This document shows, piece by piece, positions 75 through 14,737 of a stretch of DNA of 32,405 bases. Source of the stretch: Bryobacterales bacterium (GTDB lineage Bacteria; Acidobacteriota; Terriglobia; Bryobacterales; UBA6623); the NCBI GenBank assembly GCA_022823865.1, contig JAJEHF010000043.1, forward strand, positions 1 to 32,405, in the 5' to 3' direction. Numbering within the stretch: the first letter of the stretch is position 1; each line of letters starts with the position of its first letter. The notes under the pieces were generated by a model, which was not told the DNA's origin, made no database searches, and saw nothing but the letters and a program-made list of their open reading frames with translations. The position numbers and the translations under genes were made by a program.

Positions 75-420
75 GACTATGATTTTATCGAAGTCTGATC
101 TAGATTTGTTGGGATTTCAGTCGACTTTTACCACAGGCTGCTAAGAGGGTCCCCGGGGAGGAAATTTCTCGGGAATTCTCAAGAAAGAGCAGGTTTTGGC
201 CTTGCCAGCACGCGTCCCGGCCCTTAGGATCACGGCGGGTTCTCATGTTCGATGGTGCCTGGCCTCGGCCGTCACGCTGGAGATCCAGCGGGCGCGAGGA
301 CGGTGCCTCATGGCAGAGGGCATGGCCAGGTTGCTGGCCTGTAGGCCTGCCCGGCAAGGGTAGGGTGCGGGATGTACAAGGCCCGCAGCGGGCGCCTGCG
401 GGGTGCCCGAAGGGGGAACC
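75..420. other. Intergenic region left of the TonB receptor
   Basis: No convincing gene was found in these 346 bases. The left part (75-205) is AT-richer and may be the end of an insertion element. It includes GAAATTTC, an 8-base palindrome near 163-170, followed by a GAATTC site. Closer to the receptor, TAGGGT at 361-366 could serve as a -10 element, giving a leader of roughly 48 bases that ends in the purine-rich Shine-Dalgarno at 409-417. No -35 element is obvious. Short open frames here have no start signal or codon pattern to support them. Confidence 0.4.
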
Positions 421-3400
421 ATGAACTCAGGATCGCTCGCGTTCCGTCTCGCGCTGGCATTGTTGCTGTGCTCGACAACCGTCATTTGGGGCCAGGTAAC
501 GACGGCGACGCTGTACGGGACTGTGCAGGACTCGTCCGGTGCAGTCATTCCGGGTGGTGACGCGACTCTCACCAACGATGACACGGGCCTCGTCTATGTT
601 GCGCCGATCAGCGCGACTGGGGACTTCGTGTTTAACGTCTTGCCGGTCGGCACCTACACGCTCAAGGTCGAGTCTGATGGCTTCAAGACCTACGAGAGCA
701 CTGGGATCGCCTTGATTGCATCGCAGGTTGTGCGCCAGACGCACACCCTCGAGATCGGCAGCCTGACCGAGACCGTGACGGTCGAAGGCCGTCCACCCTT
801 GGTGAATACCCAAGCCTCCGAGCAGAGCGAGAGCTTGAACTCGATGAAGATCAGCGAGCTGCCGCTGGGGCGCCGCAACATCACGAATGTCCTCAGGCTC
901 TCCAGCGGCGTCGACGTGGGAGGCGGAAGCCTGCGGATCAACGGGCTCGGCAAGAGCGGCACGGGAGTCACCGTCAACGGAACCGACGCCAACTCCAATC
1001 CGTCCGAAGGCCGTGCGCTGCAACAGTATGGCGGCCGCAATTACATGGACGTGATGAGCATCGAGGCTGTGGACGAGGTGCAGGTCATGCGCGGAATCAT
1101 GAAGGCCGAGAACGGTGGGGTGGTTAGCGGGACCATCAATCTCATCAGCAAGCAAGGCACGAATGAACTCCACGGCAGCGTGTTCGAGAACTATCGCTCG
1201 CATGTGTTCAACGCGCGGAATCCGTTCCAGACAAACTACAACTCGGACGGCTCCCAGATTGCGAAGAACCGCGAGGTGTTCAATCAGTTCGGAGGTTCAC
1301 TGGGTGGTCCGATCAAGCAAAACAGGCTGTTCTTCTTCGCCACCTACGAGGGATATCGCGAATACGCCTCGCGGCGTGTGACGGGAACCGTTCCGACGCC
1401 GGAGTTGCGAACCACGATCCTCAACGCGCTTCCGTTCCAGGAAATCAGGATGCTGATGGACACCATTCCCGAGCCAACCTTGCTGTTCGACGAGTATCGC
1501 GGGCGAACCGAGACCGTCGGGTCTCGGGAACGGAGCGAGAACCATGTGATTGCCAGAGGGGACTATCGCGTCACCAATACCAGCAACCTGTCGTTCACCT
1601 ACACGCGCAATCGTCCGTTTGGCCTGGATCCGAGATACAACCTGAACGGAGCCAACGACCGCGAGTACAAGTACGTGCAGGACCGCTACAACCTGCAATA
1701 CACGCACACCGGCGTGACTTGGGTGTCCGAAACGCGCTTCGGCTCCAACTACGCCGACATGGAGAGGCTCGACAACATTTTCACGCTGGTCGACCCTGAC
1801 CGCGAGGAGACGATCGACTGGCAAAACCGGATCCCGAGGTTTCGGCTTCGCAATGTCGGGGGAACGCTCACGTTGGGCAGTGGCGAGGTCTGGCTGATGG
1901 AGGGCACGACGACCACGTTCGATCAGAAATTCACACTCAACCGAGGCAGCCACACCATCAAGTTCGGAGGCCGGGTCGTGAACTACGGCGGAGCGCGCAC
2001 GAATCCCGAGAATCCGCTCTATGAGTTCCTCAACATCGAGGAGATGCAGGCCAATCGAATCAACTCGGCCGTGATCTCGTTCGGCTCGAACGGGCCGCAC
2101 ACTTCCCGGATGTACGAAGTCGGCGGCTTTGTCCAGGACGACTGGCGCGCCCACGACAGGCTGACGCTGAACCTGGGCCTGCGCTACGACTTCTACTCCA
2201 ACAACACAGTGAATCCGACCGGCAAGATCGACGTCACCAACAAGAATCTGGAGCTGCCGCCGGGCGCCGACTTCACGAACTTCGCCTTCGGCCCCCGCCG
2301 CCCGCGGAGCATGCCGATCGACCATGATGGCTGGGTCAATCTCGGCCCGCGGCTTGGCTTCGCTTACCGTCTCGATGATGAGGGCAGCACCGTCATCAGA
2401 GGCGGGGCAGGAGTCATGTTCGCCGCGCAGGTGCCGGCAATCCTGAGGCAGAGCGTCGCCGGACCGGACATTCCATTCCGGGTCCGGTACAGCGCGGTCG
2501 AAGCGAACCGGCTGGGAGTGATGTACCCATTCACCAATGAAGAGATCGTGCCAATCGCACAGCAGGACATCGAACAGAGCGGAAACGAATTGGTGTTCTC
2601 GCTCATCACGCCGGACCTTCAGAACCCCTACACGATTAACTACCAGTTCAACATCCAACGCCAGCTCACACCCAACCTGATGTGGGAAATCGGCTACGTT
2701 GGGACGCGCGGCGTGAAGTTTCCGATGCATCGGCGGTTCAACCTGCCCGACCGCCAGACCGGGATCCGGCCCAATCCCACGCTCATACCCGGAGGGTATT
2801 TCGTCGACATGGGAGAGAGCGTGATCAATCACTCGATGCAGACGTCGTTGCGCAAGCGCTTCTCGCGCAACTTGTCGTTCGACTTTCACTACACCTGGGG
2901 CAAGACACTCGCGTTCACCGGCGGCGATGTCGGCGTGTACTACGGAACCGATGCGGAAAACTCCATTCAGGACTTCTTCGATCTGTCGATCGAGCGCGGC
3001 CCGCCCGACTTCGACACAGCACACCGGGCCGTGGGAGACTTGATCTACGAGCTTCCCAAGTTTTCCAATTCCAATGGGCTCGTTCGAGGCATTCTCGGGG
3101 GATGGCAGGTTTCCGGCATCTATTCCGGGACGACCGGGCGGCCCGAGGATAGGATCGATCAAGGCTGCTCGCAGTCGTGGGTCTGCCGAGCGGACTACAT
3201 CGGCGGCAACATCCATGCTCCGCCCGGCACGACTTTCGGCAGCCCGCGCGTCGGCTCGCATCAGGATGTGCAGTTTCTCAACCCGGCCGCTTTCGCTAGG
3301 GTCGAGGAGGTCCGCGGCATAGCCCAGCGGCCGGGGAATATGGGTGTCGGGAGGATCCGCGGCATGGGCCAGTGGACTGTGGATTTTTCCCTGTCGAAGA

Positions 3401-3573
3401 GCTTCGCCCTGAGCGAATCCTCGCGGCTTCAGATCCGGGCGGACATGTTCAACGCGCTGAACCACGTGAATCTCACGTCCTTGAACGGCAACGTGGAGAA
3501 CAGCGACTTCGGGACCCTCGACAATGCCGGGGCGATGCGTCAGATGCAGATGGCGGTGCGAATCACGTTCTAG
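421..3573 (+). CDS. TonB-dependent receptor with carboxypeptidase-regulatory domain (Oar-like)
   Basis: A 1050-residue outer-membrane receptor. The start at 421 is chosen over the in-frame GTG at 403 because GAAGGGGGA (409-417) lies just before it and the product opens with a clean signal peptide (hydrophobic core about residues 7-23, cleavage near WG-QV). A carboxypeptidase-regulatory-like Ig fold follows at about 25-115, with the typical pattern GTVxDSSGAVIPG. A plug-like region is at about 120-250 (NGTDANSNPSEGR, GGVVSGTINLISKQGTNELHG), then a long beta-barrel with many FxFxYTRN-like strands. The protein ends in VRITF, and the terminal Phe is typical of outer-membrane barrels. This architecture is expanded in Acidobacteriota. 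The substrate cannot be read from sequence; peptides, glycans and other large ligands are all possible. The gene precedes the DUF1592/DUF1552 operon by 116 bp, which suggests it may import or bind that operon's substrate or product. Confidence 0.9.
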   Translation: MNSGSLAFRLALALLLCSTTVIWGQVTTATLYGTVQDSSGAVIPGGDATLTNDDTGLVYVAPISATGDFVFNVLPVGTYTLKVESDGFKTYESTGIALIASQVVRQTHTLEIGSLTETVTVEGRPPLVNTQASEQSESLNSMKISELPLGRRNITNVLRLSSGVDVGGGSLRINGLGKSGTGVTVNGTDANSNPSEGRALQQYGGRNYMDVMSIEAVDEVQVMRGIMKAENGGVVSGTINLISKQGTNELHGSVFENYRSHVFNARNPFQTNYNSDGSQIAKNREVFNQFGGSLGGPIKQNRLFFFATYEGYREYASRRVTGTVPTPELRTTILNALPFQEIRMLMDTIPEPTLLFDEYRGRTETVGSRERSENHVIARGDYRVTNTSNLSFTYTRNRPFGLDPRYNLNGANDREYKYVQDRYNLQYTHTGVTWVSETRFGSNYADMERLDNIFTLVDPDREETIDWQNRIPRFRLRNVGGTLTLGSGEVWLMEGTTTTFDQKFTLNRGSHTIKFGGRVVNYGGARTNPENPLYEFLNIEEMQANRINSAVISFGSNGPHTSRMYEVGGFVQDDWRAHDRLTLNLGLRYDFYSNNTVNPTGKIDVTNKNLELPPGADFTNFAFGPRRPRSMPIDHDGWVNLGPRLGFAYRLDDEGSTVIRGGAGVMFAAQVPAILRQSVAGPDIPFRVRYSAVEANRLGVMYPFTNEEIVPIAQQDIEQSGNELVFSLITPDLQNPYTINYQFNIQRQLTPNLMWEIGYVGTRGVKFPMHRRFNLPDRQTGIRPNPTLIPGGYFVDMGESVINHSMQTSLRKRFSRNLSFDFHYTWGKTLAFTGGDVGVYYGTDAENSIQDFFDLSIERGPPDFDTAHRAVGDLIYELPKFSNSNGLVRGILGGWQVSGIYSGTTGRPEDRIDQGCSQSWVCRADYIGGNIHAPPGTTFGSPRVGSHQDVQFLNPAAFARVEEVRGIAQRPGNMGVGRIRGMGQWTVDFSLSKSFALSESSRLQIRADMFNALNHVNLTSLNGNVENSDFGTLDNAGAMRQMQMAVRITF

Positions 3574-3591
3574 CTGCGTTCGGAATTCGCG

Positions 3592-3621
3592 CGGCGGCGG
3601 GGCGTCGGCGCCCCGCCGCCG
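3592..3621 (+). terminator. Strong GC hairpin after the TonB receptor gene
   Basis: A perfect 12-bp stem (GGCGGCGGGGCG at 3593-3604 pairing with CGCCCCGCCGCC at 3609-3620) closes a TCGG tetraloop, and the outer C3592-G3621 pair makes it 13 bp. It lies 19 bases after the receptor stop codon. No T-run follows, so it is not a classic intrinsic terminator. It may terminate weakly, act with Rho, or protect the 3' end of the receptor mRNA from exonucleases and so set different levels for the receptor and the downstream operon. Confidence 0.6.
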
Positions 3622-3689
3622 TGAGCAGCGCGAGTAAGACCCTTCGGCCGGGAGCGGAGCGGCTTGTGATTGGAGCGGTGCAGAGGACA

Positions 3690-5999
3690 ATGAGTCTCGT
3701 TCCCAAGTTGGCGGCACTCTCCACCTTGGCGGCCTCGCTGTGCGCCCAAGTCGCTACGCAGTCGGTTCTAGACCGCTACTGTCTCGGGTGTCACAACTCA
3801 TCCCTTTCCAGCGGCGGGCTGGCTCTCGACCGGCTCGACGCCTCCGTCCCCGGCGAGAACCCGCAGGCGTGGGAGTCTGTGGTCCGCAAGCTGACGCACC
3901 GCCACATGCCCCCGCCAGGCATGCCGCGGCCTGACGGGGCGACCTACGATGCCTTGGTCGCTGAGCTGAGCCGGAGCCTGGACAACCACGCAGAGAGCCA
4001 CCCCAACGCGGGCCGCGAACGCGCCTTCCGCCGAATGAACCGCACCGAGTACCGCAACTCGATTCGAGACCTTCTCGCGCTTGACGTCGATGTGCGCTCG
4101 CTGCTGCCGCGAGACGAGAGCAGCCACGGCTTCGACAACATCACCGGCGAGGTCTCGCCGACTCTTCTGGAGCGCTATCTCTCCGCGGCGCGCAAGATCA
4201 GTCGGCTGGCGACCGGCACCCCTTCTGGCGCCGTCGGAGGCGAGTTGGTCGTCGCTCCGGTCGACTTGACCCAGGAAGCGCGCTTCAGCGAACTGCCGTT
4301 CGGCACCAGGGGCGGCATCGTGGCGAGACATACGTTTCCGACGGATGGCGACTACGAAATCCGCATCACGCTCAGCCGCGATCGGAACGAACAGGTCGAA
4401 GGACTCTACCAGCCACACGAGCTGGAACTGACCATGGACGGCCGCCACGTCCGACGGTTCACCGTGACTCCGCCCGAGCAGCGCGACCATCGGAATGTGG
4501 ACAGGCACTTGGTCGCGCGCGTCCCCGTCCGCGCCGGGCCTCGCGAGATCGGCGCCACGTTCTTGGCGAAGTCTTCCGCCCTCATCGAGACGCAGCGCCA
4601 GCCTTACTTGGCGCGGTTCAACATGGACCGTCATCCGCGCACCCAGCCGGCCGTCCATTCGCTTGCGATTGTCGGACCGTACCAGCCCAGCGGGCCAGGT
4701 GACACTCCCAGCCGCCGCCGGATCTTCTCGTGCCAGCCGGGCTCGGCATCCGAGGAAGAGCAGTGCGCCAAGCAAATCCTCTCGAGGCTGGCGCGCCGAG
4801 CCTACCGCCGGCCGGTCACGGCCGACGACATCGAGAAGCCGCTGGAGTTCTTCCGCCAGGGGCTGGAGCGCGACGGTTTTGAAGCCGGCATACAAACCGC
4901 GCTGCGGGCGCTGCTGGTAAGTCCGGAATTCCTCCTCCGGGGCGAGCGCGACAAGGTCGATGGCAGTGGTCGGCCGTACGAGGTCTCGCAGGTCGAACTG
5001 GCATCCAGGCTGTCGTTCTTCCTGTGGAGCAGCATTCCCGATGAAGAGTTGCTGGACGCGGCGGAACGCGGCGTCTTAAATGATCCGGACTCGCTGGAGC
5101 GCCAGGTCCGCCGCATGCTCCGGGATTCGCGCTCGCAGGCGTTGGTGGAGAGCTTTGCCGGACAGTGGCTGTACCTGCGGAACCTCGCTTCACTGACGCC
5201 GGACCGGCGCCTGTTCCCAGACTTCGACGAAAACCTGCGGAAAGCGTTTCGGAGGGAGACCGGATTGCTCTTCGAGACGGTCCTGCGCGAAGATCGCAGC
5301 GTGGTCGAGCTTCTCGCGGCGGACTACACGTTCCTGAACGAGCGCCTGGCGAAGCACTACGGCATCCCGCACGTCTACGGCGATCATTTTCGCCGGGTCG
5401 AACTGGATCCCAACGGTGCCAGAGGGGGGCTCCTCAGCCATGGGAGCATTCTGGCCGTCACCTCCTATGCCAACCGGACTTCGCCGGTATTGCGGGGGCA
5501 GTGGGTCTTGGCCAACATCCTCGGAACCCCGCCGCGCCCGCCGCCTCCCGAGGTCCCGGAGCTTGCCGAGCGAACCCGTTCGGAGAAGCCGCGCACGCTG
5601 CGCGAGCGGATCACCGAACACCGCGAAGACCCCGCCTGCGCCGCCTGCCACGACATCATCGACCCGGTCGGCTTCGCGTTCGAGAATTTCGATGCGGTCG
5701 GCCGCTGGCGGACGCACGACGAGGGAGTCCCGGTGGACGCCTCCGGCAGGCTTCCCGACGGGACCGAATTTTCCGGCCTGGGCGGTTTTCGCAAGGCCCT
5801 TCTGGACAGGCCCGAGTTATTCGTCTCGACCGTGGCGGAGAAGCTGCTGACCTATGCCTTGGGAAGGGGGCTTGAGTACTACGACGCCCCCGCCGTCCGC
5901 AAGATTGTTCGCGACTCGATGCAACAGGACTACCGGTTCTCGTCCTTGGTGCTGGGAGTCGTACGTAGTACGCCGTTCCGAATGAGGAGTCCTCGATGA
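3690..5999 (+). CDS. Exported diheme DUF1592-family (planctomycete-type) cytochrome
   Basis: A 769-residue exported protein. The ATG at 3690 follows GAGGA and begins a signal peptide (MSLVPKLAALSTLAASLCAQ). The open frame extends further upstream, but that part overlaps the receptor gene in another frame. Two c-type heme motifs are visible: C31LGCH35 in an N-terminal PSCyt1-like domain and C650AACH654 near the C-terminus. Between and after them are the blocks of the DUF1587-DUF1595-DUF1592-DUF1588-DUF1585 set: NRTEYRNSIRDLLALDVD (about 112-130), ARRAYRRPVTADD, a DUF1592 core (FFLWSSIPDEELLDAAERG), HGSILAVTSYANRTSPVLRG and LLTYALGRGLEYYDAPAVR. Hemes require periplasmic maturation. The biochemical function of this family is unknown; an extracytoplasmic oxidoreductase is an inference. 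The stop codon overlaps the next start (ATGA), so it is probably translationally coupled to the DUF1552 gene. Confidence 0.9.
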   Translation: MSLVPKLAALSTLAASLCAQVATQSVLDRYCLGCHNSSLSSGGLALDRLDASVPGENPQAWESVVRKLTHRHMPPPGMPRPDGATYDALVAELSRSLDNHAESHPNAGRERAFRRMNRTEYRNSIRDLLALDVDVRSLLPRDESSHGFDNITGEVSPTLLERYLSAARKISRLATGTPSGAVGGELVVAPVDLTQEARFSELPFGTRGGIVARHTFPTDGDYEIRITLSRDRNEQVEGLYQPHELELTMDGRHVRRFTVTPPEQRDHRNVDRHLVARVPVRAGPREIGATFLAKSSALIETQRQPYLARFNMDRHPRTQPAVHSLAIVGPYQPSGPGDTPSRRRIFSCQPGSASEEEQCAKQILSRLARRAYRRPVTADDIEKPLEFFRQGLERDGFEAGIQTALRALLVSPEFLLRGERDKVDGSGRPYEVSQVELASRLSFFLWSSIPDEELLDAAERGVLNDPDSLERQVRRMLRDSRSQALVESFAGQWLYLRNLASLTPDRRLFPDFDENLRKAFRRETGLLFETVLREDRSVVELLAADYTFLNERLAKHYGIPHVYGDHFRRVELDPNGARGGLLSHGSILAVTSYANRTSPVLRGQWVLANILGTPPRPPPPEVPELAERTRSEKPRTLRERITEHREDPACAACHDIIDPVGFAFENFDAVGRWRTHDEGVPVDASGRLPDGTEFSGLGGFRKALLDRPELFVSTVAEKLLTYALGRGLEYYDAPAVRKIVRDSMQQDYRFSSLVLGVVRSTPFRMRSPR

Positions 6000-7333
6000 T
6001 CATCGCAAAGAAATCCCTTCCGCGCCGAACGCTCCTGCGAGGTGTGGGCGTAGCGATCGGGCTGCCCCTGCTCGACGCCATGGTCCCGGCCATGACCGCC
6101 CAGCAGAAGACAGCGGCGGCCCCGGCCCGCAGGCTGGGGTTCGTCTACATTCCGATGGGGGCCAACCTCAGCCAGTGGACCCCTCCTGGCGACGACGGGC
6201 GGCTCGGCCGCATGTCCCGAATCCTCGAGCCCTTGGAGCCGTTCAAGGCCGAGGTCAACGTCATCACCAATCTCGAGAACAAGAACGCTTACTCGGCCGG
6301 GAATCATGCCACGGCCAACTCGGGCTTCCTGAGCGCCGCCAAGGCGAAGATGACCGAGGGAGCGGATTACGAGCTGGCGACCACCGTGGACCAGATCGCC
6401 GCGCAACGCATTGGCGGCCAGACCGCGTTGCCGTCGCTGGAGCTGTCGATGGACCTGCAGCAAAACGTCGGAGACTGCGACAACGGTTTCGCCTGCGTCT
6501 ACCAGAACCAACTGTCCTGGTCTTCGCCGACGACCCCGCTACCGTCAGTTGCGCACCCAAGGGTTGCGTTCGAGCGCCTCTTCGGCGATGGCGGCACGGC
6601 GGAGGAGCGCCGCGGCGAACTACAGGTGGACCGGGGCATCCTCGACTGGGTCGGCGAAGATCTCAGGCGTCTCAAGAAGGTGCTGGGCGCCGAAGACAAT
6701 CGGACCGTCGAGGGCTACCTCGAAAGCGTTCGCGAAGTCGAGCGGCGCATCCAGCGGGCGGAACAACAAACCGCGGAGGCACCGCTGCCCGACCTCGACC
6801 GCCCGACCGGAGTTCCGGCAGCCTACGCCGACCATGCGCGCCTGATGTTCGACCTCCAGGTGCTGGCGCTGCAAGGCGACATCACTCGGGTGATCACGTT
6901 TCAGCTGGCCCGGGAGACAAGCAACCGCACGTATCCCGAGATCGGGGTTCCCGACCCTCACCATCCCACCTCGCACCACGCCAACGATCCGCTCAAGCTC
7001 GAGAAGCTGGCCAAGATCAATACCTTCCATGTCTCGCTGTTTGCGTACTACTTGGATAGGCTGCGGTCAACTCCCGATGGGGACGGCACCCTGCTCGACC
7101 ATTCCGTGCTGCTTTGCGGCAGCGGAATGGGCAACCCGGACATTCACGACCACCTGAACTTGCCGATCGTGGTCGCTGGAGGAGGGGCCGGAAGCCTCGC
7201 CGGAGGCCGACACATCACGTACGACGAGCCCGCGCCGCTCGCCAACCTGCATCTGACCCTGCTGGACAGGATCGGCATCAGGCTGCCGTCGTTCGGAGAC
7301 AGCAGCGGCCGGATCGAGGAGCTTGCGATCTAG
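5996..7333 (+). CDS. Tat-exported DUF1552 protein
   Basis: A 445-residue protein overlapping the cytochrome gene by 4 bases (ATGA), with GAGGAG (5984-5989) six bases upstream. The N-terminus is a twin-arginine signal: basic residues, P9-R10-R11-T-L-L-R-G, then a hydrophobic stretch ending near MVPAMTA. The body matches the DUF1552 pattern: GFVYIPMGANLSQWTP near the start, GNHATANSGFLSA, SLELSMDLQQN, FQLARETSNRTYPEIGVPDP and a histidine-rich stretch (DPHHPTSHHANDP), then GSGMGNPDIHDHLNLPIVVAGG. These histidines and acids could bind metal, and a distant relation to the alkaline-phosphatase/sulfatase superfamily (as for DUF1501) is possible. Tat export implies folding, perhaps with a cofactor, before export. 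DUF1552 genes are regularly found next to DUF1592 genes, and the function of the pair is unknown. Confidence 0.88.
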   Translation: MIIAKKSLPRRTLLRGVGVAIGLPLLDAMVPAMTAQQKTAAAPARRLGFVYIPMGANLSQWTPPGDDGRLGRMSRILEPLEPFKAEVNVITNLENKNAYSAGNHATANSGFLSAAKAKMTEGADYELATTVDQIAAQRIGGQTALPSLELSMDLQQNVGDCDNGFACVYQNQLSWSSPTTPLPSVAHPRVAFERLFGDGGTAEERRGELQVDRGILDWVGEDLRRLKKVLGAEDNRTVEGYLESVREVERRIQRAEQQTAEAPLPDLDRPTGVPAAYADHARLMFDLQVLALQGDITRVITFQLARETSNRTYPEIGVPDPHHPTSHHANDPLKLEKLAKINTFHVSLFAYYLDRLRSTPDGDGTLLDHSVLLCGSGMGNPDIHDHLNLPIVVAGGGAGSLAGGRHITYDEPAPLANLHLTLLDRIGIRLPSFGDSSGRIEELAI

Positions 7334-7335
7334 AC

Positions 7336-8847
7336 ATGCGCGCACCCAGCCAAGTCCGGATCGCATGCCTTGCGGCGGCTGTCGCTCTCTCCTCTCAGCT
7401 GTCAGCCGGCGTCGGCGCGGAGCTCGTTGGCGCCGCGCGCTCGGGTGACTTCGCCGCGGTCAGGGCGATCCTTGACGCCGCAGGTGACGTGAACGTGCGA
7501 GCCGTCGACGGGGCAACCGCGTTGCACTGGGCGGCGCATTGGGACGATCTCGAGGCGGCGCGGGCGCTCATCGAGGCCGGGGCTGCGGCTGATCCGGCAA
7601 ATAACTATCAGGTGACTCCGCTAATGCTTGCTGCCTCGAACGGCAGCGCACCGATGATCGCTCTCCTCATCGCAGCCGGGGCCAGCGCGAACGCAGCGCT
7701 GCCCGCTGGCGAGACTCCGCTGATGAGAGCGGCGAGAACCGGCCGGGCAGAAGCGGTCCGGACACTCGTTCGTCATGGCGCTGAGGTCAATGCCAGTGAA
7801 TCATGGCGTGGGCAGACCGCGCTGATGTGGGCCGCGGGCGAGGGCCATCTCGCGGCCGTGAATGAGCTGATCCGTGCCGGGGCCGAGATCGGAGCGAAAT
7901 CGCATGGCGGATTCTCGGCCCTATTGTTCGCCGCGCGCCAAGGGCACAAGGGTGTGGCTCGGGCCCTGCTCGACGCGGGTGCCGACGTCAACGACGCGCT
8001 GCCCAAGCGACGCCGTCGGGGCTGGGCGACGGACAGCGCTCGCACGGAAGGACGCCAGGTCGGCGCGAGCGCGCTGGAAGTCGCGGTTTCTAACGCCCAC
8101 TTCGAAGTCGCTGCCCTGTTGTTGGAACGAGGCGCCGATCCCGACGCTGCCGGGCCGGGCTGGACTCCGCTGCACACCGTCAGCTGGGTTCGCAAGCCCG
8201 GCGTCGGAAGTAACGACCCCGCCCCGCAAGGCTCCGGAAGCATGGATAGCCTGGCGATCGTCCGGAAGCTCGTTGCCCACGGGGCCGATGTCAACTTTCG
8301 CATGACCTCGCCAACAAGCCCCGGCAAGCACAGCCTCGACACCGCAGGCGCGACGCCGTTCTTGGCCGCGGCTCGCACTGCCGATGCCGAACTGATGCGG
8401 CTCCTGCACGAATTGGGCGGCGATCCCACGATTCCAACCGAGAAGGGCACCACGCCCTTGATGGTTGCCGCGGGAGTCGGCGTGCGCGCCCCCGACGAGG
8501 ACGCGGGTACTGCCGAAGAGGTCGTCGAAGCCGTTGAGGTGGCGCTTCAGCTGGGGGGAGACCCGAACGCCATCGACGGGGACGGCAACACCGCCATGCA
8601 CGGCGCGGCCTACAAGCATGCCCCCGGCGCTGTCAGGGTGTTGGTCGACGCGGGTGCCCGAATCGAGGTCTGGAATCGCAAGAACGAGCTTGGCTGGACA
8701 CCGCTGCGCATCGCCACGGGCGTTCACCGCGGCATGAACTTTCGCTTTTCTCCCGAGACCGCCTCTGTCATCCGGGAAGTGATGCGGGCCGCCGGTGCGT
8801 CGACGGAGGTCGAACCGGAGGCATTCATCAGCGGTGCCACCAAGTAG
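7336..8847 (+). CDS. Exported ankyrin-repeat protein
   Basis: A 503-residue protein starting 2 bases after the DUF1552 stop. The ATG at 7336 opens a signal peptide (MRAPSQVRIACLAAAVALSSQLSAGVGA), which supports this start although the purine-rich site (GAGGAG) is rather far away. The rest is a stack of roughly ten ankyrin repeats from about residue 30 to the end, with the usual TALHWAA, TPLMLAA, TPLMRAA, TALMWAAGEGH, ALLFAARQGH, TPLHT, TPLMVAA and GNTAMHGAA helices and AGADVN-type turns. A basic insertion (PKRRRRGW) interrupts the array near residue 220, and longer loops occur around 290-340. Ankyrin stacks bind other proteins. A periplasmic one in an operon with a diheme protein and a Tat substrate suggests a scaffold or chaperone for that complex, which is an inference. 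Confidence 0.85.
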   Translation: MRAPSQVRIACLAAAVALSSQLSAGVGAELVGAARSGDFAAVRAILDAAGDVNVRAVDGATALHWAAHWDDLEAARALIEAGAAADPANNYQVTPLMLAASNGSAPMIALLIAAGASANAALPAGETPLMRAARTGRAEAVRTLVRHGAEVNASESWRGQTALMWAAGEGHLAAVNELIRAGAEIGAKSHGGFSALLFAARQGHKGVARALLDAGADVNDALPKRRRRGWATDSARTEGRQVGASALEVAVSNAHFEVAALLLERGADPDAAGPGWTPLHTVSWVRKPGVGSNDPAPQGSGSMDSLAIVRKLVAHGADVNFRMTSPTSPGKHSLDTAGATPFLAAARTADAELMRLLHELGGDPTIPTEKGTTPLMVAAGVGVRAPDEDAGTAEEVVEAVEVALQLGGDPNAIDGDGNTAMHGAAYKHAPGAVRVLVDAGARIEVWNRKNELGWTPLRIATGVHRGMNFRFSPETASVIREVMRAAGASTEVEPEAFISGATK

Positions 8848-8856
8848 CTCGGTCCA

Positions 8857-9732
8857 ATGAATCCTCGAGTCCTTTGCCTGGTTCTTGCAGCCGGCTTCGG
8901 GTGGGGACTGGCGGCCACAGCGGAACAGGCCGCGTTTCGCAAGGTCAGCGACCTGGTGTTCGCCGAAGTTGACGGGCGTGAGCTGCTGCTCGACCTCTAT
9001 CTGCCGCAAGCGTCGAAACCACCTCCGCTAATCGTGTATGTTCACGGCGGGGCCTGGCGCGCGGGGTCCAAGGACTCGATGCCGCTAGCCGCGCTGCTGG
9101 GCGAGGGATATGCGATTGCGAGCGTCGGGTACAGGCTCACTCCCGAGGCGCGTTTCCCGGCCCAGGTGCACGACATTAAGGCAGCGATTCGCTTCTTGCG
9201 CGGCAATCAGGATCGCTACCCATACGACGGCCGCAAGGTGGCAATTGCTGGCTCGTCGGCTGGCGGGCATCTAGCAGCTCTGGTCGGGGTGACAAACGGC
9301 ACCGCGGAACTTGAAGGAGCTGTCGGCGCGCATCTTGACCAGTCTTCGGAAGTGCAGGCGACCATTGCGTACTTCGGAGCGAGCAACCTGCTGACGATTC
9401 TGCACCAGTCCACTCCGCACGGGCTGAGCGTCCGGAAACCCGCCTTGGAGCTCTTGCTCGGCGGCCAGCCCGAGCAACAGCGGCAACTGGCGATGCTGGC
9501 GAGCCCGGTCTTTCATGTCGACAGGTCGGACCCGCCTTTGCTATTGCTACATGGCGATCAAGATCCGCAGATGCCCATCAACCAGGCGCATGAACTGCAC
9601 GGCAAGTTCAAGAGCCTCGGGCTTGCGGTCACTCTCCACGTATTGCACGGGGCCGCCCATGGTGGAAGGGTGTTCTACGACGAGGCGCGGACGAGAGTGG
9701 TCAGTGGTTTTCTCGCGTCATGCGGGATTTGA
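8857..9732 (+). CDS. Exported alpha/beta hydrolase (BD-FAE/esterase-lipase type)
   Basis: A 291-residue protein and the last gene of the putative operon, 9 bases after the ankyrin gene, with no clear Shine-Dalgarno. An N-terminal signal-like segment (residues 5-22) suggests export. The fold markers are complete: oxyanion loop HGGAW (63-67), nucleophile elbow GSSAGG with Ser134, acid Asp236 in HGDQDPQMP, and His268 in HGAAHGG. The region DLYLP...LIVYVHGGAW and YRLTPEARFPAQVHDIKAAIRF is typical of the COG0657/BD-FAE group of feruloyl-esterase-like and acetyl-esterase-like enzymes. It likely hydrolyses a carboxyl ester outside the cytoplasm. Its place in the operon suggests the substrate of the system is an ester or ester-decorated compound, but this is inference. 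Confidence 0.88.
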   Translation: MNPRVLCLVLAAGFGWGLAATAEQAAFRKVSDLVFAEVDGRELLLDLYLPQASKPPPLIVYVHGGAWRAGSKDSMPLAALLGEGYAIASVGYRLTPEARFPAQVHDIKAAIRFLRGNQDRYPYDGRKVAIAGSSAGGHLAALVGVTNGTAELEGAVGAHLDQSSEVQATIAYFGASNLLTILHQSTPHGLSVRKPALELLLGGQPEQQRQLAMLASPVFHVDRSDPPLLLLHGDQDPQMPINQAHELHGKFKSLGLAVTLHVLHGAAHGGRVFYDEARTRVVSGFLASCGI

Positions 9733-9809
9733 CAGGGGGCTGTTCGGGGGAACTGTTCGCTCTCACCGGGCGGCATGAGCTCGCGATTCAGGGCGCGCTG
9801 CCATTGGAT

Positions 9810-9838
9810 TTGCCCAGTTTTGGGCGCCGGGCTATGCT
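9810..9838 (+). promoter_or_regulatory. Putative sigma70-type promoter for the BNR gene
   Basis: TTGCCC (9810-9815) and TATGCT (9833-9838) are separated by 17 bases, each matching 4 of 6 consensus positions. The expected transcription start is only about 3-4 bases before the ATG at 9849, so the mRNA would be almost leaderless. No Shine-Dalgarno is present. Confidence 0.5.
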
Positions 9839-9848
9839 GGATGCTCTC

Positions 9849-11189
9849 ATGAGGCCGCTCCTGTTCACGTTGCTACTGGCTGGCTGCCCGTTGGCAGCCC
9901 AGGTCGTGCGCTTCGCCGGAGACGGGGCGCTGAAGATGCTCTATGACAACCGCATGTATCCGCAAGCGGTTGTCAGCCAGGGCCAGCTGCACATGGTCTG
10001 GCGCGGCGACAAGGGGCTGCCTTGGATTCGCTCCTACGACCTCGCCGCGCGCAAGCTCTCCGAGCCCCGCATGCTGCTGTCCGGAACCGGCATCGAGATC
10101 GATGCCCGGCGCTTCGAGCGGGACCAACACTACGCGCCGGTGGTGTGGGCCGAGCCGGACGGCCGCGTGCACGTCGCTTTCGGCTTCCATCGCACCCCGG
10201 GATACCATCTGGCGACGAAGCGGTCCGGCGCCACGGACGCATGGGAGCGGCGCGCCGAGATATCGCATTCAGTGTCCTATCCGCAAGTCCATAAACTCGC
10301 CGATGGCAGGACGCTTGTCTATTTCCGCGAGAGCGGCCACCTGGGCTTCTGGACCTATCGCACCTCCGCCGACGGGGGCCGCACCTGGGACCAGCCGACG
10401 AGCCCGGTGATCGATATGGACGCGCCCCCGCACGAGTCGCCGCTGGCGTCCCACGCCGGCTCGTATCAGACGACACGGGTCAGCGCGGACGGGAGCGCGC
10501 TGCACATCGCCTTCATTTGGAAGGTCGAGGAGCCCATCTCGAGCCAGCGCTACGGGTCAGTGCTGCATGACTACACCCGGCGCCACAACCTCTACTATGT
10601 CCGGGCCGACCTCGCCAGCGGGAAGGTATTCAACGCGCACGGCAAGGAACTCGCCAGGCCTGTGAACTTTGCGAGCGCCCAGCGCGACTGCTTGGTACTG
10701 GACACAGAAGGCGGCAGCGCGTCCGTGGGCCCCTCGATCGCGCTCGGTCCGGGCGGCGAGCCGAGCTTCCTGCTGCCGGTATCGGGCGAGACGCCCTACG
10801 CTTCGACGTTCTATTTCGTCCGCCTGCGCGCGGGCAAGTGGGAGAAGACGCCCCTGACGGGAACCGGGCATCCGTTCAACTCGACTCACTTGGTAGCGCG
10901 CCCGGACGGGTCCTTCCAAGCCTTCTTGATCGCCGGCGACGGCGAGGCCAACGAGGACACGCTGATGAACAGCTACGGCTGGGGCGACCGCGTCGAGGAA
11001 TGGGTCTCTGACGTTTCGGGCACCCGCTGGAAGCGCTCCCGCGACCTGACGCCCAAGCACGGATTGCGCTACCAGAGCGTCAAGTTCGTGCGCGGCGAGG
11101 ACGGCCAGAGCGTGGACGACCTGCTCCTGTTCTACGCCTGGCAGGGTGCCGGCAAGGGCTCGGCATACTTGCTGGACGAGCGCGACTAG
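9849..11189 (+). CDS. Secreted BNR-repeat beta-propeller protein (BNR_4-like; sialidase or ulvan-lyase fold)
   Basis: A 446-residue exported protein. Starts at 9834 and 9849 are both possible; 9849 is preferred because it gives a compact signal peptide (MRPLLFTLLLAGCPLAAQ). LAGC is also a good lipobox, so it could be a lipoprotein or a soluble secreted protein. The body carries repeated beta-propeller strands with Asp-box-like elements (SADGGRTWDQP, residues about 176-186) and blocks such as HVAFGFHRTPGYHLATKRSG, SYPQVHKLADGRTLVYFRESG and YTRRHNLYYVRADL. This resembles the BNR_4 family, which includes ulvan-lyase-type polysaccharide lyases as well as uncharacterised glycan-active proteins. 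Catalytic residues cannot be assigned by eye. It faces nrdR convergently and has its own promoter. From here on G+C looks higher than in the preceding genes. Confidence 0.75.
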   Translation: MRPLLFTLLLAGCPLAAQVVRFAGDGALKMLYDNRMYPQAVVSQGQLHMVWRGDKGLPWIRSYDLAARKLSEPRMLLSGTGIEIDARRFERDQHYAPVVWAEPDGRVHVAFGFHRTPGYHLATKRSGATDAWERRAEISHSVSYPQVHKLADGRTLVYFRESGHLGFWTYRTSADGGRTWDQPTSPVIDMDAPPHESPLASHAGSYQTTRVSADGSALHIAFIWKVEEPISSQRYGSVLHDYTRRHNLYYVRADLASGKVFNAHGKELARPVNFASAQRDCLVLDTEGGSASVGPSIALGPGGEPSFLLPVSGETPYASTFYFVRLRAGKWEKTPLTGTGHPFNSTHLVARPDGSFQAFLIAGDGEANEDTLMNSYGWGDRVEEWVSDVSGTRWKRSRDLTPKHGLRYQSVKFVRGEDGQSVDDLLLFYAWQGAGKGSAYLLDERD

Positions 11190-11207
11190 CCTGGGCACCG
11201 AACGCGC

Positions 11208-11223
11208 CGCCCGCGGACGGGCG
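11208..11223. terminator. Small hairpin between convergent genes
   Basis: CGCCCG-CGGA-CGGGCG is a perfect 6-bp stem with a 4-base loop, in the 52-base gap between the convergent BNR and nrdR genes. There is no T-run on either strand, so its role as a two-way terminator is tentative. Confidence 0.3.
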
Positions 11224-11241
11224 CCACGGGAGCGGCATCCG

Positions 11242-11697
11242 CTACGGCTCCAACTGGAGCGAGTGGATCTCCTTCACGAATTGATGCTCGTCCTGGAAGT
11301 CCCGGTAGACCGAGGCGAAGCGCACATAGGCCACCCGGTCGACCCGCTTGAGCTCCTGCATCAGCAACTCGCCGATCCTGCTCGTGGGGCACTCGCCTTC
11401 GGGCGATCCCATCACTTCGGACTCGGCGGCGCTCACCATGGCTTCGATTGCCGCCATCGAGACGGGCCGCTTCTCGCATGCCCGCATCAGCCCTTGCAGC
11501 ACCTTCTTGCGGTCGAAGCGCTCGCGGTGCTGATCCTTCTTCACGACCATGACGGGCAGTTCTTCGACCCGCTCGTAGGTGGTGAAGCGGCGCTTGCATA
11601 ACAAGCAGTCGCGACGGCGCCGGATCACCTCCTCCCCCTTGGTAGTGCGGGAGTCGATCACTTTGTTCTTCAGGTGGCCGCAGTAGGGGCAGAGCAC
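11242..11697 (-). CDS. nrdR: Transcriptional repressor NrdR
   Basis: A 151-residue protein of normal NrdR length. It has the N-terminal zinc ribbon (CPYC at residues 3-6 and CLLC at 31-34) with the conserved spacing segment VIDSR...GEEVIRRRRDC and RRFTTYER. An ATP-cone follows (VMVVKKDQHRERFDRKKVLQGLMRACEKRPV, about 49-80) and then the C-terminal helical part ending HSLQLEP. NrdR senses ATP/dATP and represses ribonucleotide reductase genes by binding NrdR boxes; no nrd genes are in this window. The start is GTG at 11697, giving MLCPYC, which aligns with the usual M-[KR]-CP-[YF]-C. On the minus strand TAGAAT lies 31 bases upstream as a possible -10. It is divergent from sulfatase 1 (66 bp between the start codons). 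Confidence 0.95.
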   Translation of the reverse strand: MLCPYCGHLKNKVIDSRTTKGEEVIRRRRDCLLCKRRFTTYERVEELPVMVVKKDQHRERFDRKKVLQGLMRACEKRPVSMAAIEAMVSAAESEVMGSPEGECPTSRIGELLMQELKRVDRVAYVRFASVYRDFQDEHQFVKEIHSLQLEP

Positions 11698-11748
11698 GGT
11701 CGGGTCGGCGGCTGGCGCCGGACCTACGATTCTAACCGTAAGCGCCTC

Positions 11749-11756
11749 GCTATACT
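11749..11756 (+). promoter_or_regulatory. -10 element (GC-TATACT) of sulfatase 1, leaderless
   Basis: TATACT (11751-11756) matches 5 of 6 -10 positions and ends 7 bases before the ATG at 11764, so transcription should begin at or one base before the start codon. No good -35 and no Shine-Dalgarno are visible. Confidence 0.55.
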
Positions 11757-11763
11757 TTGGGGC

Positions 11764-13605
11764 ATGCTCTCAAGGATCGCGCTACTGGCCGCCCTAGCCG
11801 CGACGGCTGCCGTCGCCGAAAGCCCCAACATCTTGTGGATCAGCTCCGAGGACAACGGCCCGCACCTGGGGGCTTACGGGGACTCCTACGCGGACACGCC
11901 CAATCTCGATGCCCTCGGCGCCAAGGGCATGATTTACCGCCGCGCTTGGTCGACCGCGCCGGTTTGCGCCCCTGCGCGCACCACCATCATCAGCGGGATG
12001 TACCCCCCGTCGACCGGCGCCCAGCACATGCGCTCGATGACGCGGCTGCCCTCTTCGATGCGCATGTTCCCGCAATACCTCAGAGACGCCGGCTATTACG
12101 TCTCGAACAACGCCAAGGAAGACTACAACCTGAAGAAGCCCGGCCAGGTCTGGGACGAGTCGAGCCGCCAGGCGCACTGGCGCAAGCGCGCGCCGGGCCA
12201 GCCGTTCTTCGCGGTGTTCAATTTCACGGTCACCCACGAATCCCAGATCCGCCGCCGGCCGCACACGCCGGTCCACGATCCGGCGGAGGTACGGGTGCCG
12301 GCCTACCATCCCGACACCGAGGAAAGCCGCAGGGACTGGGCCCAGTATCACGACAAGATCAGCGAGATGGACGCGATGGCGGGCAAGGTGCTGGCCGAGC
12401 TGCGCGAGGACGGGCTCGAAGAGGACACGATCGTGTTCTACTGGGCCGATCACGGGCCGGGCATGCCGCGCGGCAAGCGCTGGACGTACAACTCCGGCCT
12501 CCACGTCCCGCTGATCCTGCACATACCGGAGAAGTTCAAGCACCTCCGTCCGGCCGAGTACGCGGCCGGCGGCGCGAGCGAGCGCTTGGTCGGGTTCGTT
12601 GACCTCGCGCCGACTGTCCTGAGCCTGGCCGGCGTCGAGCCGCCCGACCACTTCCAGGGCTACGCCTTCGCCGGTGAGTTCGAAGCGCCGCCCCAGCCGT
12701 ACATCTACGCCTTTCGCGGCCGGATGGACGAACGCTACGACATGGTTCGCAGCGTGACCGACGGCCGCTTCATCTACATCCGCAACTTCATGCCGCACCG
12801 TATCTACGGGCAGTACATCCAGTACATGTTCCAGACCCCGACCACCGCCGTGTGGCACCGCCTGTACCACGCCGGCAAGCTCCAGCGGCCCCGGACGCAT
12901 TTCTGGGAGACCAAGCCCGCCGAGGAGCTCTACGATCTGGAGCGAGACCCCGACGAGACGCAGAACTTGGCTTCCAGTCCCGAGCACCGCAAGGATCTCG
13001 AGCGCTTGCGGGCGGCCCGCCGCGAGTGGTCGCTGTCGATCCGCGACCTTGGCTTTCTGCCCGAGAATGCGATTCACGAGCGCGCCGGAGATGACGCGCC
13101 GCATTCGATGGGTGCCAACCCCATGCGCTTTCCGATCGGGCGCATCATGCGCATGGCGGAGCTGGCATCCTCCATGGATGCCGGGGCGGAGGCCGACTTG
13201 CGCCAGGGCTTCGACGACCCCGACAGCGCAGTGCGCTATTGGGCGGCCCTAGGCGCCCTGATGCGCGGCCGCGAGGGCGTCCAGGCGTTGGCTGGCCCCT
13301 TGCGGAAGGCGCTGGGCGACGCGGATCCGACCGTGCGGATCGCCGCGGGCGAGGCGCTGGGGCGTTATGGCAGCGATGCCGAGGCCGGGCGTGCGCTCGA
13401 GGTGCTAGTGCAGCATGCCGATACGAGCGAGAACGGCTTGTTCGTTGCCATGGCCGCGCTGAACGCGCTGGACTACATGGACGAGCGAGCCGACCCTGCC
13501 CTTGAGAGGATCTTGGCCGTGCCGCAGAATGATCCGCGCTACGACCGGCGCTTCGGCGCCTACCTGCCGAACTTGGTCGGCAAGATCCGGGCTGATGCAG
13601 AGTAG
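11764..13605 (+). CDS. Exported sulfatase (FGly type) with C-terminal repeat domain
   Basis: A 613-residue protein. The ATG at 11764 starts a signal peptide (MLSRIALLAALAATAAVAES), and the frame upstream lacks any such feature. The sulfatase domain spans about residues 20-400. The metal-binding start is NILWISSEDNGPHLGAYGD, and the formylglycine motif C68-A-P-A-R72 is intact and of the Cys type that requires an aerobic formylglycine-generating enzyme. YWADHGPGMPRGKRW supplies further active-site metal/sulfate ligands. The C-terminal 130 residues (about 475-605) are helical and contain HEAT-like repeats (DDPDSAVRYWAALGAL, GDADPTVRIAAGEALGRYG), a fusion seen in some Acidobacteria and Planctomycetes sulfatases, perhaps for protein binding. 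It likely removes sulfate from a glycan or other sulfate ester in the periplasm. The substrate is unknown. Confidence 0.9.
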   Translation: MLSRIALLAALAATAAVAESPNILWISSEDNGPHLGAYGDSYADTPNLDALGAKGMIYRRAWSTAPVCAPARTTIISGMYPPSTGAQHMRSMTRLPSSMRMFPQYLRDAGYYVSNNAKEDYNLKKPGQVWDESSRQAHWRKRAPGQPFFAVFNFTVTHESQIRRRPHTPVHDPAEVRVPAYHPDTEESRRDWAQYHDKISEMDAMAGKVLAELREDGLEEDTIVFYWADHGPGMPRGKRWTYNSGLHVPLILHIPEKFKHLRPAEYAAGGASERLVGFVDLAPTVLSLAGVEPPDHFQGYAFAGEFEAPPQPYIYAFRGRMDERYDMVRSVTDGRFIYIRNFMPHRIYGQYIQYMFQTPTTAVWHRLYHAGKLQRPRTHFWETKPAEELYDLERDPDETQNLASSPEHRKDLERLRAARREWSLSIRDLGFLPENAIHERAGDDAPHSMGANPMRFPIGRIMRMAELASSMDAGAEADLRQGFDDPDSAVRYWAALGALMRGREGVQALAGPLRKALGDADPTVRIAAGEALGRYGSDAEAGRALEVLVQHADTSENGLFVAMAALNALDYMDERADPALERILAVPQNDPRYDRRFGAYLPNLVGKIRADAE

Positions 13606-13631
13606 GCCGCGCCGCAGGCTTGCGGTCCTTT

Positions 13632-13639
13632 GCTAGGAT
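13632..13639 (+). promoter_or_regulatory. Extended -10 (TGC-TAGGAT) of beta-lactamase-family gene
   Basis: TAGGAT (13634-13639) is preceded by TGC (13631-13633), the extended -10 arrangement, and ends 9 bases before the ATG at 13649. The leader would be about 2-3 bases. No -35 or Shine-Dalgarno is seen. Confidence 0.5.
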
Positions 13640-13648
13640 TTTCCGCGG

Positions 13649-14737
13649 ATGAGGCGCAGGACTTTCTTGACTGCGGCGCTGGCGGGCTCGATTGCGAGCG
13701 CCGCTCGCCGCGACGATCTCGAGGCGGCCGCGAGCTTGGTCGCCGCGCAGGTTGCCGGCGGTGCGGTAAAGGGCGCCGTGCTTGACGTCCGCCTCGGCGG
13801 GGACGTGTTTCAGCGCCACTACGGCAGTGCCTTGACAGCGGACGCGATATTCTTGCTGGCGTCGATTACCAAGCCGATGACCGCCGCCGGCGCGATGCTG
13901 CTGGCCGACCGCGGGGAGTTAAAACTGGCCGATCCGGTCAGGCGCTTCGTCCCGGAGTTCAGCGGAGGGGCGCGCTCCCGCGTGACCGTCAAGCACTTGC
14001 TGACGCACGCGTCCGGCCTGCCGGACCAGCTCCCCGAGAACGTCGAGTTGCGCAAGCGAAACGCTCCCTTGAGCGAATTCGTCGAGCGGACGATCCGCAC
14101 GCCCCTGCTGTTCGAGCCGGGCACGCGCTACTCCTACCAGAGCATGGGCATCCTGCTGCTGGCCGAGATTTGCGAGCGCATCACCGGCACGGCGTTTCCC
14201 GATTACTTGGACCAGAGCCTGTTCCGGCCGCTCGGCATGGAGCGCACCGCCCTGGGCCTGGGCCGAATCCGCTTGGAAGAGACGCAGCGCAGCCAAGTCG
14301 AACAAGGCCCGCCGCACGGCGGGCAAGGCAGGCCCGAGGCCGCGCACTGGGATTGGAACAGCCGCTACTGGCGCGAGCTGGCGTCCCCGTGGGGCGGGGC
14401 CCATGCCAGCGCGGGAGACGTGTCGAGGTTCTTTCTCGAGTTCCTGGCCCCGGAGCGAGCCGAGGTGCTGCGCCCGGCGACCGCGGCGCTGATGGTGCGC
14501 AACCACACGCCCAAGCTGGGCAGGCCGCGAGGCCTGGGCTTCGCGCTCGGAGGCGGAGCCGGGGCTGGCTGCTCGGAGCGGACTGCGTGGCACGGCGGCG
14601 CCACCGGGACGCTCGCCTGGGAGGATCCGCAGTCCGGGGTGCGCTTCGTGCTGTTGACCACATTGCCCAACACGGTGGCGAACAAGCTGCTGATCGGTCC
14701 CGTGTCGGACGTGGTGTCCCAGGCCAGCCAGGTCTGA
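13649..14737 (+). CDS. Serine beta-lactamase-family hydrolase (class C/EstB type)
   Basis: A 362-residue protein with a short Tat-like signal (MRRRTFLTAALAGSIASA). The serine-hydrolase motif S72-I-T-K75 is present, followed by HLLTHASGLPDQLPEN (about 116-131), which is characteristic of the 'Beta-lactamase' Pfam group. The second motif reads Y163-Q-S rather than Y-x-N, and a third motif WHGGATG sits near the C-terminus in place of K-T-G. These features fit carboxylesterases, D-aminopeptidases and other EstB/LACTB-like enzymes better than true antibiotic-hydrolysing beta-lactamases. It probably acts outside the cytoplasm on an ester or amide. It stands between the sulfatase and pyrF, all on the same strand, but each has its own -10-like element, so they may be separately transcribed. 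Confidence 0.88.
   Translation: MRRRTFLTAALAGSIASAARRDDLEAAASLVAAQVAGGAVKGAVLDVRLGGDVFQRHYGSALTADAIFLLASITKPMTAAGAMLLADRGELKLADPVRRFVPEFSGGARSRVTVKHLLTHASGLPDQLPENVELRKRNAPLSEFVERTIRTPLLFEPGTRYSYQSMGILLLAEICERITGTAFPDYLDQSLFRPLGMERTALGLGRIRLEETQRSQVEQGPPHGGQGRPEAAHWDWNSRYWRELASPWGGAHASAGDVSRFFLEFLAPERAEVLRPATAALMVRNHTPKLGRPRGLGFALGGGAGAGCSERTAWHGGATGTLAWEDPQSGVRFVLLTTLPNTVANKLLIGPVSDVVSQASQV

What the first reader, a model, noticed from the sequence alone, without database searches (positions are those of the whole stretch)
3690..9732. Four-gene extracytoplasmic module: diheme DUF1592 cytochrome, Tat DUF1552, exported ankyrin protein, exported esterase
Seen: four genes with junctions of -4, +2 and +9 bases, all with export signals, and two CxxCH motifs in the first. 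Known: DUF1592 and DUF1552 genes recur as neighbours in Acidobacteriota, Planctomycetes and some marine Proteobacteria, but neither has an assigned reaction. Inferred: a periplasmic redox-hydrolytic complex in which the ankyrin stack scaffolds the cytochrome and the Tat substrate, the esterase prepares or finishes the substrate, and the upstream TonB receptor takes it up. This is the strongest candidate for an undescribed system in the window.
Basis: partly seen in the sequence, partly recalled or inferred. Interest (0 to 1): 0.72.

Follow-up and report, generated by a model that had tools for sequence, protein, structure and literature searches.

The report
Conserved exported cytochrome-DUF1552-ankyrin gene trio
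Three neighbouring genes for exported proteins, a two-heme cytochrome, a DUF1552 protein and an ankyrin-repeat protein, form a conserved set in several bacterial phyla and probably work together in an unknown redox reaction outside the cell membrane; the fourth gene, an esterase, is only an occasional neighbour.

The parts
3690..5999 (+). Exported diheme c-type cytochrome of the planctomycete type (PSCyt1-PSD3-[jelly roll 180-334]-PSD5-PSD4/DUF1592-PSCyt3-PSD2), 769 aa
5996..7333 (+). Tat-exported DUF1552 (HXXSHH) protein, 445 aa, alkaline-phosphatase/sulfatase-superfamily fold; His motif HHPTSHH at residues 322-328
7336..8847 (+). Exported ankyrin-repeat protein, 503 aa, third member of the module
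   Evidence: Pfam; full-length family beside DUF1552/DUF1592 in 35 of 40 chosen loci and present in 76 of 80 DUF1552 loci
8857..9732 (+). Exported BD-FAE/Abhydrolase_3 esterase, 291 aa: occasional 3' neighbour, not a core part
   Evidence: Pfam; within 1 kb 3' of the ankyrin gene in 3 of 64 evaluable relatives and at 2 of 7 own-genome trios
421..3573 (+). Oar-type TonB-dependent receptor upstream; not shown to belong to the module
   Evidence: PF25183 464 bits; 63 distinct such receptor loci in this genome by my count of the 81 matches; within 5 kb of 3 of 21 own DUF1552 genes; mild excess in the window's class

Best explanation
Genes 1-3 encode one extracytoplasmic oxidoreductase unit. Shown: the three genes are kept together in at least three phyla and after rearrangement. 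Inferred: the Tat-exported DUF1552 protein, an alkaline-phosphatase/sulfatase-fold protein in which the usual acidic metal motif is replaced and which has a conserved His-rich motif, binds and activates the substrate; the diheme DUF1592 cytochrome, which may hold a sugar-like ligand through its jelly-roll domain, takes the electrons and passes them to the respiratory chain; the ankyrin stack docks the two. The many diverged paralogues (7 trios and 21 DUF1552 genes in this genome) suggest a substrate-specialised family, as with sulfatases. The esterase is at most an accessory for some substrates. Confidence: three-gene functional module about 0.93; DUF1552 in the alkaline-phosphatase superfamily about 0.9; redox division of labour about 0.45; ankyrin as scaffold about 0.45.
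Confidence: 0.45

Rival explanations
1. The ankyrin protein is a maturation or heme-handling factor for the cytochrome, as ankyrin proteins are for catalases, and not a scaffold of the working complex.
For: [quoted passage not shown] The ankyrin gene accompanies a c-type cytochrome gene in nearly all loci examined.
Against: 14 of 21 own DUF1552 genes, 13 of them with a DUF1592 neighbour, do without it, so the cytochrome family does not need it as such. c-type heme is attached by dedicated systems (established knowledge). Among the ankyrin residues conserved in at least 85% of 66 rows there is no Cys; that the conserved His (64, 255, 280, 422) are ordinary repeat positions is my reading.
Confidence: 0.2
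2. DUF1552 is a hydrolase of the sulfatase/phosphatase superfamily with a changed metal site, and the cytochrome is a separate sensor, peroxidase or electron carrier; no electrons pass between them.
For: Alkaline-phosphatase-superfamily fold; sulfatases are frequent generic neighbours (13 of 80 loci).
Against: The motif that binds metal in sulfatases (ADHG in the window's own sulfatase) aligns with SGMG in DUF1552. 20 of 21 own DUF1552 genes sit next to a DUF1592-type cytochrome, which a plain hydrolase would not need.
Confidence: 0.2
3. One reading: TonB receptor takes up, esterase prepares, trio oxidises.
For: All five genes are co-directional and close in the window. The esterase lies directly 3' at 2 of 7 own trios (expected about 0.02, Poisson 2e-4, tested after the fact) and at 3 of 64 relatives. 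Receptor hits above 100 bits in 10 of 40 ankyrin-first loci of the class against about 4 expected (Poisson 0.01, assuming the own genome's density). My odds were raised from 0.08 to 0.1 for this.
Against: 61 of 64 evaluable relatives and all 40 ankyrin-first loci lack the esterase nearby; no receptor of this type above 100 bits was found in the 50 verrucomicrobial and planctomycetal loci, and only 6 of 28 acidobacterial loci have one, at 6 bases to 6.7 kb.
Confidence: 0.1
4. The linkage is hitch-hiking of genes without a shared function.
For: Paralogues are numerous and the genomes are rich in these families.
Against: Linkage survives in several phyla and through changes of order and orientation; 31 of 31 genomes with the ankyrin family have DUF1552.
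Confidence: 0.03

Closest known systems
PSCyt3 gene next to a family of unknown genes (planctomycete-specific cytochromes, Ecophysiology of Freshwater Verrucomicrobia, 2017, PMC5615132)
   Same: Same cytochrome domain family; the paper says that PSCyt2 and PSCyt3 genes usually sit next to each of two families of unknown genes. The library search counts DUF1552 three times in its stored text though not in the main text, so that family is most likely DUF1552.
   Different: The passages I read mention no ankyrin partner; Fig. S7b and Text S1 were not available to me; the study is of Verrucomicrobia MAGs.
DUF1549/DUF1553 (PSCyt2/PSD1) + DUF1501 pairs
   Same: DUF1501 is homologous to DUF1552 (probability 97, E 8e-11). 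Of 20 chosen DUF1501 loci, 8 have an ORF with one CxxCH directly next to them; the 2 of these 8 that I tested are PSCyt2-PSD1 proteins.
   Different: Different cytochrome type; DUF1501 has GEFG where DUF1552 has SGMG. Ankyrin partners of these pairs were not searched for. In 11 of the 20 stretches no CxxCH ORF of 300 aa was seen.
Sulfatases / nucleotide pyrophosphatases (alkaline phosphatase superfamily)
   Different: Canonical metal motif replaced; partner cytochrome.
AnkB-KatB (Pseudomonas) and Cj1386-KatA (Campylobacter)
   Same: Ankyrin protein, periplasmic for AnkB, that serves a heme enzyme (citing passage and reference titles in PMC7567364; the original papers were not held).
   Different: Partner is catalase. 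Recalled, not looked up: those ankyrin proteins are much shorter.

Membership tests
DUF1592-type planctomycete cytochrome | PSCyt1, PSD3, PSD5, PSD4, PSCyt3 and PSD2 over Pfam cut-offs | tested here: met
   all six over cut-off
DUF1592-type planctomycete cytochrome | two CxxCH heme motifs | tested here: met
   conserved
DUF1552 (HXXSHH) | PF07586 over cut-off and the His motif | tested here: met
   318 bits; HHPTSHH at 322-328
Alkaline phosphatase superfamily (fold) | core fold | tested here: met
Sulfatase family | acidic metal-binding motif (DHG/DNG) after the strand 370-375 | tested here: not met
   aligned with SGMG; S376 invariant in 82 sequences, no D/H pair; alignment of 88 columns, probability 62
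Sulfatase family | Cys/Ser nucleophile (formylglycine) motif | tested here: inconclusive
   profile alignment covers only columns 339-435
AnkB/Cj1386-type catalase ankyrin | adjacent catalase gene | tested here: not met
   no catalase family among the eight Pfam-scanned window genes, 403-14734
AnkB/Cj1386-type catalase ankyrin | heme binding | not testable with these tools
   needs protein

The most novel reading that the evidence does not exclude
The trio is a new class of exported oxidoreductase: a re-tooled alkaline-phosphatase-fold protein (His-rich site, cofactor loaded before Tat export) coupled to a diheme cytochrome with a carbohydrate-binding-like domain and organised by an ankyrin scaffold, amplified into many substrate-specific versions in Acidobacteriota, Verrucomicrobiota and Planctomycetota.
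Probability: 0.3. Interest if true: 0.78.

Novelty: new variant of a known kind. Interest (0 to 1): 0.57.

Why it matters
These cytochrome and DUF families occur in many copies per genome in soil, freshwater and marine bacteria (21 DUF1552 genes here) and I found no assigned reaction. A fixed three-protein unit with a recognisable fold for DUF1552 gives a concrete object to express and assay, and a third gene that marks one clade out of many paralogues. If they oxidise glycan-derived compounds outside the cell, part of the carbon turnover by these phyla runs through an unknown enzyme class.

Tried and rejected
A fourth core gene: all-against-all comparison of neighbouring ORFs in the 80 loci gave no recurrent partner beyond sulfatases (13 loci), PSCyt2-PSD1 proteins (10) and DUF1501 (10) (family names checked on one representative each). 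TonB receptor as a general partner: not supported, with a mild excess in the window's class told above. Solved relatives by sequence: none for DUF1592 and only chance-level hits for DUF1552. NCBIfam gave no name to genes 1 and 2, and for the ankyrin protein only hits far below the cut-offs. Ankyrin-linked DUF1552 as a strict single clade: a quick tree of 87 rows needs 3 changes, which would fit one gain and losses at L086 and L089; a careful tree of 50 rows, without those two and without two long-branch own rows (L022, L028), needs 2, with 1 in 26% of bootstrap trees. The label is strongly clustered in both (0 of 500 shuffles as low), but one origin is not proven, and the careful tree of the 87 rows and the AU test did not finish. 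Fold of the helical parts of DUF1592: barely tested. Literature: no paper of the library holds DUF1592 and DUF1552 together; DUF1552 in 2, DUF1592 in 2 papers, of which I read passages and one section part; the listings (titles and starts of abstracts) showed nothing on the trio. The library holds open-licence papers only, so a description elsewhere is possible.

Full report
Observation. The four genes are present at the stated coordinates with the stated junctions, domains and heme motifs. The window lies in a 6.07 Mb draft genome of 231 contigs that is probably acidobacterial: the closest DUF1552 relative, at 80% identity, is in a Bryobacterales MAG. This is single-gene evidence.

Own genome. 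There are 21 DUF1552 genes and 21 DUF1592 matches over the cut-off. At 20 of 21 DUF1552 loci a DUF1592-type cytochrome gene lies beside it; the exceptions are a lone DUF1552 (L009, contig C49) and a lone DUF1592 (contig C72). At 7 of 21 (window, L010, L012, L013, L014, L015, L018) an ankyrin gene follows, 2 to 38 bases downstream on the same strand. The other ankyrin matches lie on nine other contigs, and no full-length match to this ankyrin family was reported outside the seven.

Relatives, starting from DUF1552. The ordered, co-directional trio is in 74 of 80. Of the six others, L045, L074 and L077 end at a contig edge at the missing gene, L089 lacks the ankyrin, L090 lacks a detected cytochrome gene directly upstream, and L086 lacks both. 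In 72 of 76 loci with an ankyrin gene its aligned part starts within 400 bases of the aligned end of DUF1552. At L057 an IS200-like transposase lies in the gap, and L052 has a fragment of similar sequence there. Because the query was built from ankyrin-linked members, this describes that clade, not DUF1552 at large.

Relatives, starting from the ankyrin. Among 121 genomes of the class, 31 hold the full-length ankyrin family at E 1e-80 and 47 hold DUF1552; all 31 are among the 47, and 16 of the 47 lack the ankyrin. From the ankyrin matches listed (the list was cut) I fetched 40 that were not from the own genome: the top 20, and 20 picked by hand down the rest of the list. At 35 of 40 DUF1552 or DUF1592 is adjacent. 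L109 and L119 stop at a contig edge, L132 has an edge on one side, and L130 and L138 have no adjacent partner. Order differs at four: ankyrin first in L131 and L133, divergent in L143 and L144. Linkage kept through rearrangement is the strongest argument for a shared function.

The esterase. It is co-directional and tight in the window. Within 1 kb 3' of the ankyrin gene an esterase of this family lies at 3 of 64 relatives with enough sequence: L043 same strand, L054 and L058 convergent (L058 confirmed as BD-FAE). None was found in the 40 ankyrin-first loci. In the own genome it is at 2 of 7 trios (window, and convergent in L014), against an expectation of about 0.02 from 17 such genes by my count. 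This is a loose, recurrent association, tested after the fact, not membership.

The receptor. The own genome holds 63 distinct receptor loci of this type by my count of the 81 matches; 3 of 21 DUF1552 genes have one within 5 kb. In the 80 loci 6 have one above 100 bits, all acidobacterial. In the 40 ankyrin-first loci 10 have one, against 4.2 expected at the own genome's density (Poisson 0.01; density in those genomes was not measured). A loose link in this group is possible; a general one is not.

Evolution. The ankyrin label is strongly clustered on the DUF1552 tree, with 3 changes in a quick tree of 87 rows, two of them at L086 and L089, and 2 in a careful tree of 50 rows. The seven own trios are spread over the quick tree, which argues for old, specialised paralogues, not recent copies. 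Distances of the three proteins correlate at 0.79 to 0.86 over 66 loci, 7 of them own, as expected for genes inherited together.

Mechanism. The best-supported reading is an exported oxidoreductase unit with DUF1552 as substrate-handling part, the cytochrome as electron acceptor and the ankyrin as scaffold. The module is shown; the division of labour is inferred. Catalase-associated ankyrin proteins (PMC7567364 passages) make a maturation role the main rival.

Known and new. The cytochrome-unknown-gene pair is known. The searches found no description of the ankyrin-containing trio in an open-licence library; this does not exclude one elsewhere. I rate it a new variant of a known kind.

Noticed in passing
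L057:10639-11091 and L052:2457-2801: An IS200-like transposase (Y1_Tnp) sits between the DUF1552 and ankyrin genes of the trio in L057; L052 has a fragment of similar sequence at the same place (by eye).
   Followed up: partly
own genome: About 62 DUF1501 genes over the cut-off and 63 Oar-type TonB receptor loci, by my count of the matches, in one 6 Mb genome: a strong expansion of both families.
   Followed up: no
L009:4387-5751 (contig C49): A lone DUF1552 gene with the highest PF07586 score of the genome and no cytochrome neighbour; close to the ankyrin-linked clade in the tree.
   Followed up: partly
L167 (contig C172): A weak but over-cut-off DUF1501 match beside a 1105-aa protein with two CxxCH and a PSCyt3 match just below the cut-off: possibly a swapped pairing of the two cytochrome systems.
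   Followed up: partly
L088:10401-11894 and L116:3509-4817: Ankyrin gene in three pieces and DUF1552 gene in two pieces: decay or sequencing error; left as they are.
   Followed up: no
window 11242-11697 (-): An NrdR-type gene (Zn ribbon and ATP cone) lies on the opposite strand between the BNR-repeat and sulfatase genes.
   Followed up: partly
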